Shown one piece after another: positions 38,775-44,990 of a DNA stretch of 64,000 bases. Each line of letters opens with the position of its first letter. The stretch's first letter is position 1. The stretch spans positions 29,121 through 93,120 of the forward strand of contig JAINDL010000035.1 in the NCBI GenBank assembly GCA_019931245.1, written 5' to 3'. Origin of the DNA: Bryobacteraceae bacterium CoA2 C42. GTDB lineage: Bacteria > Acidobacteriota > Terriglobia > Bryobacterales > Bryobacteraceae. A program made the translations under genes and the position numbers. The notes under the pieces were generated by a model that saw only the letters and a program-made list of their open reading frames with translations, did not search any database and was not told the origin of the DNA.

Positions 38775-39836
38775 TTACTGCGAAGGACGCCGCGGCGGGC
38801 GGCGGTGTGGCATCCGGCAGCCAGAGATACGCATGGGGTTGGGCATGGCGGGCATGCCGTCTTCGAGCTCCCAGGGCGTGATCTGGCGCAGGGCTTCGGC
38901 AACGGTTTGCACGCTGCCGCAGGGGACCCCTGCCGTGTTGAACCGCTGCTGCCAGTCGGCGCGCGAACGCGCGGTGAACAGCGGAGTCAGAAGCGGGAGT
39001 AGTTCGTCGCGGTGCCGGACGCGCAGGGCGTTGCTGGCAAAACGCGGATGCGCTTTCCATTCCGGCTGCTCCATCATGTCGCAGAAGCGGAGCCAGATGC
39101 GTTCGTTCGGAACGCCGACGGCAAGCTGGCCATCGGCGCAGGCGAATACCTGATAGGGGACGATGCTGGCCAGGCCCAGGCCGGCCGGCGCCGGGTCCAC
39201 GCCCGCCAGGAGCGCCGCCGAGGTGAGCGGCGACATACCGGCGAGTAGGCTATCCAACAGGGAGACGTGAATCCGGGCGCCCTCTCCGGTGCGCTGGCGG
39301 CGGAACAGGGCGGCGAGAATGGCTTGGCTGGTGAAGAGCGAAGCGAGGACGTCGGCAACGGGGAAGGAGGTTTTGCCAACGGTGTTCCCGGGCAGCGCGC
39401 TGGTATGCATGAGGCCGCTGAGGGCCTGCACCATGAGGTCGTAGCCGGGCTGCGTGGACTCCGGGCCGAAGCCGCTCACCGAGGCATAGATGAGCGCAGG
39501 CTGCCCCAGTTGCTCGTAGCCGAAGCCGAGGCGGTCCATCACGCCGGGGCGGAAGTTTTCGACCAGTACGTCCGAGGCGGCGATACGGGCGAGGACGGCG
39601 GCGCGGTCGGCCTTGAGATCGAGCGCGACGCTGGTCTTATTGCGATTCAAACCCAGCCAGTAGGTGCTGTCGTCGCCGTGGAAGGGCGGGCCCCATTGGC
39701 GCGTTTCATCACCGGCGTCCGGCTCTTCAACCTTGGTCACTTCGGCGCCGAGGTCGCCCAGCATCATTGTGCAGAACGGCCCGGCCACCGCCCGGGTCAG
39801 GTCGAGCACCCGGATACCCGCCAGCGGCAGGCTCAT
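38775..39836 (-). CDS. CoA transferase family III (CaiB/BaiF)
   Basis: MSLPLAGIRVLDLTRAVAGPFCTMMLGDLGAEVTKVE, LNRNKTSVALDLK, DVLVENFRPGVMDRLGFGYEQL; the ORF extends upstream but homology starts at ATG 39836. Confidence 0.95.
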   Translation of the reverse strand: MSLPLAGIRVLDLTRAVAGPFCTMMLGDLGAEVTKVEEPDAGDETRQWGPPFHGDDSTYWLGLNRNKTSVALDLKADRAAVLARIAASDVLVENFRPGVMDRLGFGYEQLGQPALIYASVSGFGPESTQPGYDLMVQALSGLMHTSALPGNTVGKTSFPVADVLASLFTSQAILAALFRRQRTGEGARIHVSLLDSLLAGMSPLTSAALLAGVDPAPAGLGLASIVPYQVFACADGQLAVGVPNERIWLRFCDMMEQPEWKAHPRFASNALRVRHRDELLPLLTPLFTARSRADWQQRFNTAGVPCGSVQTVAEALRQITPWELEDGMPAMPNPMRISGCRMPHRRPPRRPSQ

Positions 39837-41365
39837 GCCGGGAGCACCTCTTGGCTGGGCGGCAGCAGGGAGACCGGGATGAGGTAGCCCCGCTGCAGCA
39901 GCCCGCGCAGAATCGGCAGCGCGGCGTCCACAATCTCGGGAAAGCTGACCCCGACGGCCTCGCCCATGGCGGCGATGAGTTCCCGCAGGGGAACGGTTCC
40001 ATCGCAGCGGGCGAGCAGCCCGGCGGTGTACTGATCGATGCGCCCGCTGTAGGGCAGTGGCTCTTCGAGAAAGATCTCCGCTTCGGTCGAGGCCCAGCGG
40101 CTGCTCACCTGCTGGTAGACGTGGCGCATGCGGGCGGCGCTGGCGAGCTGGTAGGGTTGGTCGAGCAGTTCGTCTACCGTAGCTTGGTGGAGCAGCGTGT
40201 GGATAGCGAGTAACTGCAGCAGCGTTTCTCCCCAACGGCCGCGGATCACCGGGGGCGCTTCGTCGATGTACAGCCAATTACCGCCGGCGCGCTTGCGCAG
40301 AACGACGAGTCCGGTTTGGATTCCGGTCATGTGGAGATCGTCGTAGTAGTCCAGCCAGCGATTGTAGGTGCGGTGGAACTCTTCGGGGGAGAGATGGGCC
40401 CGGTAGGAGCGGAGCCACGACATGGCGTAGCTGGGCAGATCTTCCCCTTTACTTGTCGACACCCAGACATCGCAGCCGTTGCCGGCGACCCACTGCCGGA
40501 GCCGGTCGCTCGGGCTGGTGCCTTTGAGCACGGCCCACTCGCAGATAATCACGGCGATGCCGCCTTCGGCTAAGTGCTGGGGGGCGCCGCGAATGACGGT
40601 TTCGGTGACGCGGTCGGCGCCGAGTCCGCCGTCTCGGTAGTGAAACTCCGTTTCGGGCGAGATCACAAACGGAGGATTGGAGACGATCAGATCGAAGGTT
40701 TCGCCCGCGACCTCCGCGTAGAAGTTCGACAGGCGGAAATCGATGTTCGCCGCCCGGTTCAGCCGGGCGGCCAGGCGGCCGAGGCTCAGCGCGCGGGGGT
40801 TGATGTCGAGGCCCACCACCTCGTCGCAGTGCGTGGCGAGATGGAAGGCTTGGAAGCCGCCGCCGCAGCCAACGTCGAGGGCGCGGCGGTAGTGGCGGCG
40901 GGGCGCCGCGTTGGCGGGCGCCAGCGAACTAGTGCCCACGCCCATCACCAGATATCTGGCCACCGGCGACCGCTTGGCCGCGAGCGTGTCGTAGACAATG
41001 TAAAAACCGCGGATCGGGTGCACGATCACCGGGCAGACGAGGCCCCCGGGCGCGGCTTCGAGTAGGCCACCGGCGGTGAGGGCGGCGAGCAGGCTTTCGC
41101 CGAACAGTTCGCGCAGGGACTCCGCGGGCACCGGCACCGTAAGCAGGAACAGCCGGATCAGCAGGCTGAGCGGCGTTGTTTCGTCGAGAGCGCGGAGAAC
41201 CATGGGGGCCGCGCCCTCGGTGGTCGCATTGCCGTTGAGGCCGGGCGGCAGGACGGCTTCGAGCGACTTTTCGTCGAAGCCGACGCGGTCGAACAGGGCG
41301 CGGAGCGCAGGCAGCGCTCGCGGGTCGAGCCGGGAAAAGGGGGCGAGGATCGCTGCGTTGGTCAA
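39833..41365 (-). CDS. Class I SAM-dependent methyltransferase (NPPF motif, PrmC/HemK-like core)
   Basis: RRALDVGCGGGFQAFHLATHCDEVVGLDINPRAL, FDLIVSNPPFVISPE. Confidence 0.88.
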   Translation of the reverse strand: MTNAAILAPFSRLDPRALPALRALFDRVGFDEKSLEAVLPPGLNGNATTEGAAPMVLRALDETTPLSLLIRLFLLTVPVPAESLRELFGESLLAALTAGGLLEAAPGGLVCPVIVHPIRGFYIVYDTLAAKRSPVARYLVMGVGTSSLAPANAAPRRHYRRALDVGCGGGFQAFHLATHCDEVVGLDINPRALSLGRLAARLNRAANIDFRLSNFYAEVAGETFDLIVSNPPFVISPETEFHYRDGGLGADRVTETVIRGAPQHLAEGGIAVIICEWAVLKGTSPSDRLRQWVAGNGCDVWVSTSKGEDLPSYAMSWLRSYRAHLSPEEFHRTYNRWLDYYDDLHMTGIQTGLVVLRKRAGGNWLYIDEAPPVIRGRWGETLLQLLAIHTLLHQATVDELLDQPYQLASAARMRHVYQQVSSRWASTEAEIFLEEPLPYSGRIDQYTAGLLARCDGTVPLRELIAAMGEAVGVSFPEIVDAALPILRGLLQRGYLIPVSLLPPSQEVLPA

Positions 41366-41514: not shown

Positions 41515-43014
41515 ATGGCGAAAACTGCAATCTCTGAGGTCTTTTTGGATGTCGATCCGCAGCGGCGCTCGACCGCGCGGCCGGAGCCGGATGCGCCGTT
41601 TTCCATCCTGATTCTGGGCGATTTTTCCGGGCGGACGAGCCGCGGAGTGGTCGAACCCCTGGCCGGGCGCCGTCCCGTGGCGATCGACCGCGATGAGATC
41701 GACGCCGTCATGCGGCGTTTCGAGATCCGGCTGCGTCTGCCGCTGGGTGCGGGCGGCGCGGTGGCAGACCTAAGCATTGCCGAACTCGACGATTTTCATC
41801 CCGATCGCATCCTGGCCACGCAGCCGCTGTTCGCCGCGCTGCGGCAGATGCGCCGGCGTCTTGAAAATCCGGCGGCGCTGGCGGCCGTCACGGAGGAGAT
41901 TCTCGGCGGGGCGGCGCGCCCGCCGGCGCCCTCGGCCGCGGTGCCGGAATCGGGCATCGTCACGGGAAGCCTGCTGGACGCCATCGTCGAAGGCGCGGAG
42001 CCGCCTGCTTCCCCTTCCGCCCGCAGACGGCCGGCCGACCCGCTCCTGGCCTATGTACAGGACCTGGTGGCGCCGCACCTCGAACGGACAGACGATCCGC
42101 GCCAGAAGGAGCTGCTGGCGCAACTGGACGAAACCATTGCCGGGCAGATGCGGTCGTTGCTGCACCAGCCGCAATTTCAGGCCCTTGAGAGTGCGTGGCG
42201 GGCGCTCGATTGGCTCGTGCGGCATACCGAGACGGATTCCCAACTGCGGATTTACCTGCTCGATGTGAGCAAAGCGGAGTTGATCGCCGATCTGGCGACC
42301 GCCAGCGATCTGCGCACGACGGCGCTGTACCGGCTGCTGGTGACGCAGCCGGTCGACGGGGAGCCGTGGTCGCTGTGGGGAGCGGATCTGTACTTCCGGC
42401 CGTGGATCGACGAAATCGAGCTGCTGGCCCGGCTGGCGATGATTGCCGATCAGGCTGGTGCGCCGCTGTTGTCCGGGGCGGATCCGTCGATTCTAGGGGT
42501 GAAGAATCCCGAGGACCTCCGGCATACCGAAGAGTGGGAGGAAGGGGATCCGGTCTGGCGGGAGATGCGGCAGCTGCCCGAGGCCCGGCGCATCGGACTG
42601 GCGCTGCCCCGCTTTCTGGTTCGTTTGCCATACGGGAGGCTCTCAAATCCGGTTGAGGGCTTCGCCTTTGAGGAGATGCCGAATCGAACGTCGGTGCACG
42701 CGGGCTATTTGTGGGCCAATCCCATGTATGCCGGTGTGCAGTTGATCGCCCATGCCTTCGCCGTCGAGCGGTGGCAGATGCGTCCCGGGCAGTTTCAGAA
42801 CATCGATGGATTGCCGCTGCACGCCTATCTCGAATACGGCACTCCGGAGGTCAAGCCCTGCGCCGAGGTTCTGTTGACTCTGCAGGCGGCGGAGCGTATG
42901 ATTGCGCAGGGATTGATGCCGCTTCTGACGATGAAGGGGACCGATACGGTCCGCATCGGCATGTTTCAGTCGATTGTGGATCCGCCGGCGGCGCTGGCTG
43001 GAAGGTGGGGATAA
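41515..43014 (+). CDS. Fused TssB-TssC-like type VI / contractile sheath protein
   Basis: N-terminal TssB-like PFSILILGDFSGR...RPVAIDRDEIDAVMRRFEIRLRL...LSIAELDDFHPDRI; C-terminal TssC-like FQALESAWRALDWLVRHTETDSQLRIYLLDVSKAEL, LALPRFLVRLPYGRLSNPVEGFAFEE, YLWANPMYA. Confidence 0.88.
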   Translation: MAKTAISEVFLDVDPQRRSTARPEPDAPFSILILGDFSGRTSRGVVEPLAGRRPVAIDRDEIDAVMRRFEIRLRLPLGAGGAVADLSIAELDDFHPDRILATQPLFAALRQMRRRLENPAALAAVTEEILGGAARPPAPSAAVPESGIVTGSLLDAIVEGAEPPASPSARRRPADPLLAYVQDLVAPHLERTDDPRQKELLAQLDETIAGQMRSLLHQPQFQALESAWRALDWLVRHTETDSQLRIYLLDVSKAELIADLATASDLRTTALYRLLVTQPVDGEPWSLWGADLYFRPWIDEIELLARLAMIADQAGAPLLSGADPSILGVKNPEDLRHTEEWEEGDPVWREMRQLPEARRIGLALPRFLVRLPYGRLSNPVEGFAFEEMPNRTSVHAGYLWANPMYAGVQLIAHAFAVERWQMRPGQFQNIDGLPLHAYLEYGTPEVKPCAEVLLTLQAAERMIAQGLMPLLTMKGTDTVRIGMFQSIVDPPAALAGRWG

Positions 43015-43060: not shown

Positions 43061-43447
43061 ATGAATCAACCTGACAGAAAGAAGTTCCACGCGATGCTAC
43101 TCGCCAAGCAGATCGAGTTGCAGAATCGGTTGGCTCGCCGTGACGACCTAGAGGTGCAGGTATCCCCTGACGAATTCGATGCCCGGCTTCAGTTGGTAGA
43201 CCGGGAATTCCAGAGCGGCCTGTTGCATCAGACAGCGTTGGATCTTCGCGAAGTGCGTGCGGCTCTCGTCCGCATTGAGGACGACAGCTACGGCGTTTGC
43301 GCCGAGTGTGACGACGCGATTTCGCCGGCCCGGTTGCAGGTGATTCCGTGGGCTAACTACTGCGTGAAATGCCAGGAGCAGATCGAGGTGGAAAAACAGA
43401 TGGAAGACCTCGATGAACGGCCGCAGGAGTTAGTGCCCAGCGAGTAA
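43061..43447 (+). CDS. TraR/DksA-family zinc finger regulator
   Basis: RIEDDSYGVCAECDDAISPARLQVIPWANYCVKCQEQIE. Confidence 0.93.
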   Translation: MNQPDRKKFHAMLLAKQIELQNRLARRDDLEVQVSPDEFDARLQLVDREFQSGLLHQTALDLREVRAALVRIEDDSYGVCAECDDAISPARLQVIPWANYCVKCQEQIEVEKQMEDLDERPQELVPSE

Positions 43448-43470: not shown

Positions 43471-44802
43471 CTAGTGGTTGAGGCGGATCTGCTGGCCTTC
43501 CTGGAGACCGCCCAGGATGGTGGCGTGGGTGTCGTTGCTGAGTCCGATGGTCACTTCGCGGGCAGCAAAGCCGTCTGCAGTCTTCACGTCGACAAAGGCT
43601 TTGCCGTCCTGTCGGTAAATCGACTGCCGAGGCACGATCAAGGCGGTCTGCACCTGGTCGAGGACAACATCGGCGGAGCCGGAAAGGTCGGGAATCAGGT
43701 GGGAGTCGGAACCCTCGATGGCAAGTTTCAGAGGAATCGTACGGATGTACGGGCTCTGGCGCCAGCCTCCGGCGGCGATGGCCCCAATGCTGAAGACCTT
43801 GGCCTTCATGACCATTCCAGGGAAGGCGTCGAGGCGGACTTCCGCCGTTTGTCCCAGGCGGAAGTCGTCACTTTCGGCCTGATTGATCCGGGCATCGAGC
43901 ATCATGCTGGCCGGATTAACGACCTTCATGAATGGCTGCCCGGGAGTGACCTGATCTCCCTGTTCGACCGTGCGCATGGAACTGCCGCCCCAGACGGATT
44001 GCAGAACCACCAGACCGTCCATCGGCGCCGTAATGGTGAACCGCTTGACATCGGATTCATGGCGGGCCAGATGCCGCTTATGACGCTCCAGGGTGAAGCC
44101 CAGGATCGCCAGATCGGCCGCCTGCTGCTTCTTGGTATTTTCAAGGTCCGACTGCAGCTGCTTGTAACGAGCCTGAGCCTCTTCAAAGGAGAGTTGCAGC
44201 AGTTGGCGTTCGACCTCCGTCCGGACTTCGGCGGCGGAGGCTTCGAGCCGCGCCTTGTCGAGATCGGCCTTGGCTACCAGAATGGTTTGCTCAAGGTTCT
44301 TCCAGTCAATTTCGAGTTCCGCCTTGCGCTTCCGCACATCAGCGATGGCGGCCTCGACGGTGTCCTTGACGTCGTCGATATGGTCCTGCAAACTCTGCCC
44401 GTCAATGCGGGCGATGACATCCCCCTGCTTGACCTGCGCCCCCGAGTTGACCATATTGAGGAGGACCATCGGACGGTTGCCCTCCGGGCCGCGAATCATG
44501 GGGGCCGTGATCGTGGCGAAGTTTTTCGCCGCGGTAGTCCCGGCGATGCGGGTCCGCTTCTGCAGCGTACCGCGCTGCACGTTCGTGGTAGGGATGACTA
44601 CCTCTACGGACTGCGCCTTTTGGGCTTCGCGCGGCTTGTAGCCGAACTCGTAGCCGGCCCAGACCGCGCCGGCCACGAGGGCCAGAACCAGGAACGATTT
44701 CCAGCGCTTGCCGGACGGTGCTTCGGGAGGCAGCGCCGGAGAGAGCTTGGCCGGTTGGCCAGAGGGGGTCGGTTGCGGTGTGGGGTTGAGAATCGCCGAC
44801 AT
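43471..44802 (-). CDS. HlyD/RND-type periplasmic adaptor (membrane fusion) protein
   Basis: VQRGTLQKRTRIAGTT, NSGAQVKQGDVIARID, long coiled coil, ITAPMDGLVVLQSVWGGSS. Confidence 0.9.
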   Translation of the reverse strand: MSAILNPTPQPTPSGQPAKLSPALPPEAPSGKRWKSFLVLALVAGAVWAGYEFGYKPREAQKAQSVEVVIPTTNVQRGTLQKRTRIAGTTAAKNFATITAPMIRGPEGNRPMVLLNMVNSGAQVKQGDVIARIDGQSLQDHIDDVKDTVEAAIADVRKRKAELEIDWKNLEQTILVAKADLDKARLEASAAEVRTEVERQLLQLSFEEAQARYKQLQSDLENTKKQQAADLAILGFTLERHKRHLARHESDVKRFTITAPMDGLVVLQSVWGGSSMRTVEQGDQVTPGQPFMKVVNPASMMLDARINQAESDDFRLGQTAEVRLDAFPGMVMKAKVFSIGAIAAGGWRQSPYIRTIPLKLAIEGSDSHLIPDLSGSADVVLDQVQTALIVPRQSIYRQDGKAFVDVKTADGFAAREVTIGLSNDTHATILGGLQEGQQIRLNH

Positions 44803-44990
44803 AGAAAGTAGGACCAAGATCTTGGATACAGGATCACGGAGACGGGCCGCGTCACGAGGGAGGACGACTGGCGTCAGGTCAAGGTTACGCCTCTTTCACT
44901 CTAGCACCCGGATGTCAGGGTGCGCGAAGGGGTAAAGTTTTGCACCGGGTCGGACGATGAACCACTCGGGAGCGGTCTCCCAAAGGTTTT

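What the first reader, a model, noticed from the sequence alone, without database searches (positions are those of the whole stretch)
41515..43014. Solitary fused TssB-TssC sheath protein without other type VI secretion genes
The N-terminal ~110 aa look like TssB (LGDFSGR, IDRDEIDAVM, ELDDFHPDRI) and the rest like TssC (LESAWRALDWLVRH..., ALPRFLVRLPYG, LWANPMY). In typical T6SS these are two proteins, clustered with tssA/E/F/G/H/K/L/M and vgrG. Here the neighbours are a methyltransferase, a TraR/DksA-like protein and an HlyD adaptor, with no baseplate, spike or membrane complex in the window. It may be an orphan contractile structure or a repurposed sheath.
Basis: partly seen in the sequence, partly recalled or inferred. 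Interest (0 to 1): 0.75.

Follow-up and report, generated by a model that had tools for sequence, protein, structure and literature searches.

The report
Accessory TssB-TssC fusion of type VI secretion
A gene in this acidobacterium encodes one protein made of the two building blocks of the type VI secretion 'spring' but without the inner part that lets the spring polymerise; it is not an orphan, because the genome holds a complete type VI system elsewhere, and it belongs to a widespread but hardly studied family of accessory parts first noticed in marine roseobacters.

Summary
In detail: window 41515-43014 (+) encodes 499 aa with a TssB/VipA domain and a TssC/VipB domain, and no other T6SS gene is nearby. 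'Orphan' does not hold: the genome has a complete T6SS on another contig with its own TssB and full-length TssC. The fusion lacks TssC's C-terminal gp25-like domain (PF18945), which forms the handshake that polymerises sheaths. All 49 scanned homologues, from several phyla, have VipA+VipB and none has PF18945; most end in L-x-G-R/P-W. They form one clade apart from canonical TssC, and it includes the roseobacter fusion published as 'TssCL'. The gene is under purifying selection (dN/dS about 0.08) and occurs almost only with a T6SS (71 of 73 fused-bearing genomes of the order have TssK; 45 of 49 elsewhere). In other lineages it sits inside T6SS operons. Most likely it is an accessory, non-polymerising sheath mimic. 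By its anatomy it could plug onto the last sheath ring and cap it (inferred); a ClpV decoy and a baseplate adaptor are live rivals. A new member of a known, uncharacterised kind.

The parts
41515..43014 (+). Fused TssB-TssC(delta-C) protein, 499 aa, TssCL-type sheath-like accessory protein
   Evidence: ORF; Pfam VipA + VipB, no VipB_2; AF2/Foldseek match to T6SS sheaths; dN/dS about 0.08
41539..41553 (+). N-terminal VFLDV (aa 9-13): likely counterpart of the TssB beta-1 donor strand (inferred)
   Evidence: Alternating hydrophobic strand, mostly 18-19 residues before the TssB core in homologues (74 of 95 with the pattern, 21 expected by shuffling; canonical TssB spacing about 17); relatives are not independent. 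Low pLDDT in the single-chain model
41584..41868 (+). TssB/VipA-like domain (aa 24-118)
   Evidence: PF05591 E 2.1e-12; 49 of 49 homologues
41965..41994 (+). LLDAIVEGAE helix (aa 151-160), resembling the ClpV-binding N-terminal helix of TssC (LLDEII in VipB)
   Evidence: Alignment with own TssC LLDQIVEQGR; loose LLDxh pattern in 83 of 103 homologues; helix aa 151-160 in model; VipB motif from PMC4239648. ClpV binding not tested
42109..42963 (+). TssC/VipB N-terminal domain (aa 199-483)
   Evidence: PF05943 E 8.1e-58
42994..43008 (+). C-terminal LAGRW motif in place of the missing gp25-like domain
   Evidence: L-x-G-[RP]-W-like end in 96 of 103 homologues; ordered in model
43061..43447 (+). DksA/TraR C4 zinc-finger protein, 46 bp downstream; syntenic in nearest relatives, not T6SS
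   Evidence: PF01258; conserved next to the fusion in L036-L040
39833..41365 (-). Methyltransferase (MTS; DUF7059/DUF7782), divergent neighbour, not T6SS
43471..44817 (-). HlyD-type periplasmic adaptor, convergent neighbour, not T6SS

Best explanation
Identity (shown, about 0.93): an accessory, sheath-like component of the genome's type VI secretion system, a compact member of the TssB-TssC fusion ('TssCL') family. It is a sheath protomer in one chain (middle and outer layers, TssC-type ClpV-recognition helix) that has lost the inner gp25-like domain. Mechanism (inferred, about 0.35): in a T6SS sheath each protomer offers an acceptor sheet (TssC b11-b12) to the next ring and donates two arms (TssB b1 and TssC b13) to the ring nearer the baseplate. 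The fusion appears to keep only the TssB-type donor arm and has lost the acceptor sheet, the TssC arm and the tube-facing layer. It could therefore dock onto an exposed sheath end but could not accept a further ring, so it would act in small numbers as a cap or terminator at the distal end, with ClpV perhaps stripping it through its LLDxI helix. Shown: architecture, conservation, T6SS linkage, selection, single clade. Inferred: donor arm, capping, ClpV binding.
For: VipA+VipB and no PF18945 in 49 of 49 homologues; the alignment ends exactly where the own-genome TssC continues into its last ~125 residues; conserved L-x-G-R/P-W end. AF2 model and Foldseek hits to T6SS sheaths. T6SS linkage: 71 of 73 fused-bearing genomes of the order have TssK, the other 2 have a canonical TssC (Fisher p 2e-18, relatives not independent); TssK in 45 of 49 and full-length TssC in 43 of the same 49 fused-bearing genomes in other groups. 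Operon linkage: fusion directly before tssK (L109, L114; G192, G093, G108, G014, G103), between clpV and vgrG in Desulfobacterota, before tssB-tssC-hcp-tagJ-tssA-tssE (L043, L047, L054), inside complete T6SS operons in Ruegeria, Leisingera and Qingshengfaniella. One clade with roseobacter TssCL, SH-aLRT 100. Purifying selection. Handshake anatomy from PMC5807055 and PMC5813253.
Against: No experiment on any member. The solitary position here gives no operon evidence in this genome. 50 T6SS-bearing (TssK+) genomes of the order have no detected fusion, so it is dispensable for a T6SS. The donor-strand pattern is absent or displaced in Blastocatellia, and linkers are longer in Gammaproteobacteria. 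No complex could be modelled, so capping, ClpV binding and stoichiometry are untested; operon neighbours (tssK, clpV, vgrG) fit a baseplate or recycling role equally well.
Confidence: 0.6

Rival explanations
1. Soluble regulator or decoy: it mimics a TssBC protomer and titrates ClpV (or TagJ) through its TssC-type helix, or holds TssB/TssC partners, so that it times sheath assembly or recycling without being part of the machine.
For: LLDxI helix kept in most homologues; no handshake acceptor; in Desulfobacterota the gene follows clpV, sometimes with FHA-EAL or FHA-SpoIIE regulators beside it.
Against: Domain 2 and 3 sheath layers are conserved throughout, more than a ClpV decoy would need; roseobacter and Eleftheria homologues lack the helix at the usual place.
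Confidence: 0.22
2. Baseplate-side adaptor: the domain it lacks is gp25-like, as TssE is, so it may pair with TssE/TssK at the base of the sheath.
For: Immediate neighbour of tssK in many Acidobacteriota and in Eleftheria; PF18945 is described as gpW/gp25-like; TssE is structurally homologous to sheath domain 1 (PMC5813253).
Against: Without an acceptor sheet it cannot pass the handshake on to the first real ring; in other lineages it sits by clpV/vgrG or tssB/tssC instead.
Confidence: 0.18
3. Minor sheath subunit mixed into ordinary TssBC sheaths at random.
For: Same fold as sheath protomers; co-occurs with full-length TssC.
Against: Lacks the acceptor sheet, the TssC donor strand and the tube-facing layer, so a random insertion would break the mesh.
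Confidence: 0.1
4. Orphan contractile device, independent of the T6SS.
For: Alone in the window, and alone in several lineages (mnmG-parAB context in Blastocatellia).
Against: Complete T6SS in the genome; near-strict co-occurrence with T6SS genes; no polymerising domain; no tube, spike or baseplate genes beside it.
Confidence: 0.03
5. Decaying relic of a sheath gene.
For: Solitary, lacks a domain; split into two ORFs in two genomes of the genus (G081, G107).
Against: dN/dS 0.08-0.11, conserved termini and architecture across phyla.
Confidence: 0.02

Closest known systems
TssCL, TssB-TssC fusion of roseobacter T6SS clusters (Suria et al. 2022, PMC9515649)
   Same: VipA + VipB in one chain, kept alongside separate tssB and tssC; T6SS-linked; same clade in the tree.
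   Different: The published example is 1,684 aa with two VipA domains and lies inside the T6SS operon; the window protein is 499 aa, has one VipA and lies outside the cluster. The paper reports TssCL only in Alphaproteobacteria and as a recent event; here the family spans several phyla.
Canonical TssB/TssC (VipA/VipB) sheath
   Same: Fold and order of the TssB core, ClpV helix and VipB domain.
   Different: Two chains fused; no PF18945 gp25-like domain; below both NCBIfam equivalog cut-offs.
TssC40/ImpD of Agrobacterium and Rhizobium (PMC3702570)
   Same: A second, non-redundant TssC-family protein beside normal TssC; TssC40 differs from TssC41 in not being needed for TssB stability.
   Different: Rhizobium ImpD has VipB + VipB_2 and no VipA, and falls with canonical TssC in the tree.
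TssE (gp25-like baseplate protein)
   Same: Complementary: TssE corresponds to the sheath inner domain alone, the fusion to the sheath without it.
   Different: No shared domain.

Membership tests
TssB-TssC fusion (TssCL) family | VipA (PF05591) and VipB (PF05943) in one polypeptide | tested here: met
   roseobacter members
TssB-TssC fusion (TssCL) family | Separate tssB and tssC kept in the same genome | tested here: met
   C166 TssB and TssC over NCBIfam cut-offs
TssB-TssC fusion (TssCL) family | Common ancestry with roseobacter TssCL apart from canonical TssC | tested here: met
   SH-aLRT 100, 41 fused against 36 canonical rows (quick tree)
TssB-TssC fusion (TssCL) family | Two VipA domains and long N-terminal part (published ANG-M7 protein; a feature of that example rather than of the clade) | tested here: not met
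   One VipA, 499 aa; only one VipA detected in Ruegeria, Leisingera and Qingshengfaniella homologues too
TssB-TssC fusion (TssCL) family | Gene inside a T6SS operon (as in roseobacters; not so in several lineages of the clade) | tested here: not met
   Solitary in the window; T6SS genes on contig C166
Canonical TssC (TIGR03355) | Score over the equivalog cut-off and gp25-like C-terminal domain | tested here: not met
   191.6 against 271.5 bits; no PF18945
Canonical TssB (TIGR03358) | Score over the equivalog cut-off | tested here: not met
   44.0 against 97.25 bits
TssC40/ImpD type | VipB + VipB_2 without VipA | tested here: not met
Contractile sheath (functional) | Assembles into contractile tubes around Hcp | not testable with these tools
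   Predicted unable: handshake acceptor and tube-facing region missing

The most novel reading that the evidence does not exclude
The family is a dedicated sheath terminator or cap, an ancient structural part of many non-model T6SSs that stops polymerisation because it can plug onto a sheath end but cannot accept the next ring, and that ClpV may remove.
Probability: 0.3. Interest if true: 0.7.

Novelty: new member of a known kind. Interest (0 to 1): 0.42.

Why it matters
Standard T6SS gene lists omit this part, and RefSeq names it simply 'contractile sheath large subunit', so it is easily miscounted as TssC. The only description found calls the fusion a recent, alphaproteobacterial event. The data here suggest a single old family across several phyla, always lacking the polymerisation domain and nearly always accompanied by a full T6SS. 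[quoted passage not shown]

Tried and rejected
Orphan contractile device: rejected by the complete T6SS elsewhere and by co-occurrence. Displaced sheath of a T6SS lacking tssB/C: rejected, C166 has both. Identity with Agrobacterium/Rhizobium TssC40/ImpD: considered, rejected by domains and tree. Pseudogene: rejected by dN/dS. A missing C-terminal domain encoded in a following ORF: the next ORF is a DksA-type protein. Literature searches for 'TssBC fusion' wording found nothing useful until the two-tssC and roseobacter queries led to PMC9515649. A Vibrio plasmid hit that looked full-length (H19) is an ordinary adjacent tssB-tssC pair.

Full report
WHAT IS THERE. The ORF at 41515-43014 (+) is real and intact: 499 aa, ATG start, no internal stop, coding-like base composition, and dN/dS 0.08-0.11 against relatives with 74-97% protein identity. 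It carries a TssB/VipA domain (PF05591, aa 24-118, E 2.1e-12) and a TssC/VipB domain (PF05943, aa 199-483, E 8.1e-58), both over Pfam cut-offs. It fails both NCBIfam equivalog cut-offs for sheath subunits. A structure predicted from an alignment of 49 homologues (pLDDT 87.5, pTM 0.85) matches T6SS sheath chains of Pseudomonas, Vibrio, Myxococcus and Francisella and, far more weakly, other contractile sheaths.

The TssC half is not complete. Aligned with the full-length TssC of the same genome, the fusion stops where TssC continues for about 125 residues. That piece is PF18945, described as a gpW/gp25-like tail-sheath domain. All 49 scanned homologues have VipA and VipB and none has PF18945. 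Most end in the same short motif, L-x-G-[RP]-W (96 of 103 by a loose pattern). In the roseobacter members the motif is followed by an acidic extension. The truncation is therefore a defining trait of the family, not an accident of this copy.

NOT AN ORPHAN. The same genome (6.07 Mb, 237 contigs, about 98% complete) has a T6SS on contig C166: TssB, TssC, Hcp, TssA, TssE, TssF, TssG, ClpV and VgrG over NCBIfam cut-offs, and a TagJ-like ORF with no NCBIfam match at the limit used (125-139 kb), with TssK, TssL and TssM at 6.5-14.4 kb. It has exactly one PF18945 protein, that TssC. The fusion is thus a second, different sheath-like protein in a genome that already has a normal sheath.

LINKAGE TO T6SS. 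In 200 genomes of the same order, 73 have the fusion; 71 of these have a strong TssK match and the other two still have a canonical TssC; 50 TssK-bearing genomes have no detected fusion (table and Fisher p 2e-18; the lists were transcribed by hand and related genomes are not independent, so the p-value is only descriptive). Among 49 fused-bearing genomes reached in other groups, 45 have TssK and 43 have a full-length TssC (one search gives 44 of 50 including the window's own genome). The exceptions are draft metagenome assemblies, so absence is not established. In the window's own lineage the gene stands alone in a conserved setting (methyltransferase, fusion, DksA-like, HlyD). Elsewhere it is in T6SS operons: immediately before tssK in several Acidobacteriota (L109, L114; G192, G093, G108, G014, G103 by coordinates; for L109), between clpV and vgrG in Desulfobacterota, before tssB-tssC-hcp-tagJ-tssA-tssE in L043, L047 and L054, and inside annotated complete clusters in Ruegeria, Leisingera and Qingshengfaniella plasmids. 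In Blastocatellia it is solitary before mnmG and parAB, as it is in several Gammaproteobacteria.

FAMILY AND PRIOR KNOWLEDGE. A tree of the VipB region puts 41 fused proteins on one side of a branch with SH-aLRT 100, and 36 canonical TssC, including Rhizobium ImpD, on the other (quick method, several long branches). The roseobacter fusions lie inside the fused clade. A TssB-TssC fusion was described in those bacteria as 'TssCL' (PMC9515649): 1,684 aa with two VipA domains and one VipB domain in Leisingera sp. ANG-M7, kept with separate tssB and tssC, reported only from Alphaproteobacteria and taken for a recent event; no function was tested. No other paper in the searched library uses the name. 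The window protein is a compact relative in another phylum, and the breadth found here (record titles name Acidobacteriota, Desulfobacterota, Gammaproteobacteria, Planctomycetota, Verrucomicrobiota and Gemmatimonadota; metagenome bins may be misassigned) argues for an older family. RefSeq names members 'type VI secretion system contractile sheath large subunit'. The nearest functional precedent for a second TssC-family protein is Agrobacterium TssC40, which is not redundant with TssC41 for Hcp secretion and, unlike TssC41, is not needed for TssB stability (PMC3702570); its Rhizobium counterpart is of a different build (VipB + VipB_2, no VipA).

HOW IT MAY WORK. In the solved sheath, TssC strands b11-b12 form an acceptor sheet, filled by b13 of a neighbouring TssC and by the N-terminal strand b1 of a TssB; a middle layer and a three-helix outer layer complete the protomer (PMC5807055). 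Each subunit's two linkers go to the ring nearer the baseplate, and TssE resembles the inner sheath domain (PMC5813253). The fusion keeps the middle and outer layers and a TssC-type LLDxI helix like the one by which VipB binds ClpV (PMC4239648). It has no b11-b13 region. Its N-terminus carries a short alternating strand, mostly 18-19 residues before the TssB core, against about 17 in canonical TssB (the shuffle control ignores relatedness; absent or shifted in Blastocatellia and some Gammaproteobacteria). If that strand is a working donor arm, the protein could attach to the exposed end of a sheath but could not accept another ring: a cap or terminator. This is inference from anatomy. A ClpV/TagJ decoy and a TssE/TssK-side adaptor are serious alternatives and cannot be separated with single-chain tools.

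VERDICT. Real, T6SS-linked, not orphan. A new member of a known but uncharacterised kind, with a wider distribution and a clearer architectural definition than found in the literature. Interest is moderate (0.42), because the identity is largely explained while the function is open and testable.

Noticed in passing
G000 contig C166, 6.5-14.4 kb and 125-139 kb: The genome's T6SS is split in two clusters about 110 kb apart on one contig (TssK/L/M; TssA-TssH, Hcp, VgrG). Two TssK-type genes are found in this genome and in most T6SS-bearing genomes of the order.
   Followed up: partly
L018, L019 (G107 C40:75620-77148; G081 C180:5318-6767): In two genomes of the same genus the fusion is read as two adjacent ORFs (residues 1-316 and 318-498; 1-291 and 305-498), a frameshift or assembly error.
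   Followed up: no
L150, L151, L155, L156: Alpha- and betaproteobacterial members lack the usual LLDxI helix but have an acidic C-terminal tail with LDDLLxxF/L stretches, ending in a conserved D-x-ELAALL-like motif; the Ruegeria and Qingshengfaniella proteins carry about 500 extra N-terminal residues.
   Followed up: no
L058, L063: In Desulfobacterota the fusion is flanked by FHA-GAF-SpoIIE or FHA-EAL signalling proteins, and near clpV by an M91-type effector-family protein.
   Followed up: no
L152:10360-11748, L154:8911-10326: ImpD/TssC40-type second TssC (VipB + VipB_2, no TssB, apparently without the N-terminal ClpV helix region) is a separate sheath paralogue branch in Rhizobium and Azospirillum.
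   Followed up: partly
window 39833-41365 (-): Methyltransferase with DUF7059 and DUF7782 flanking domains, conserved beside the fusion in the genus.
   Followed up: no
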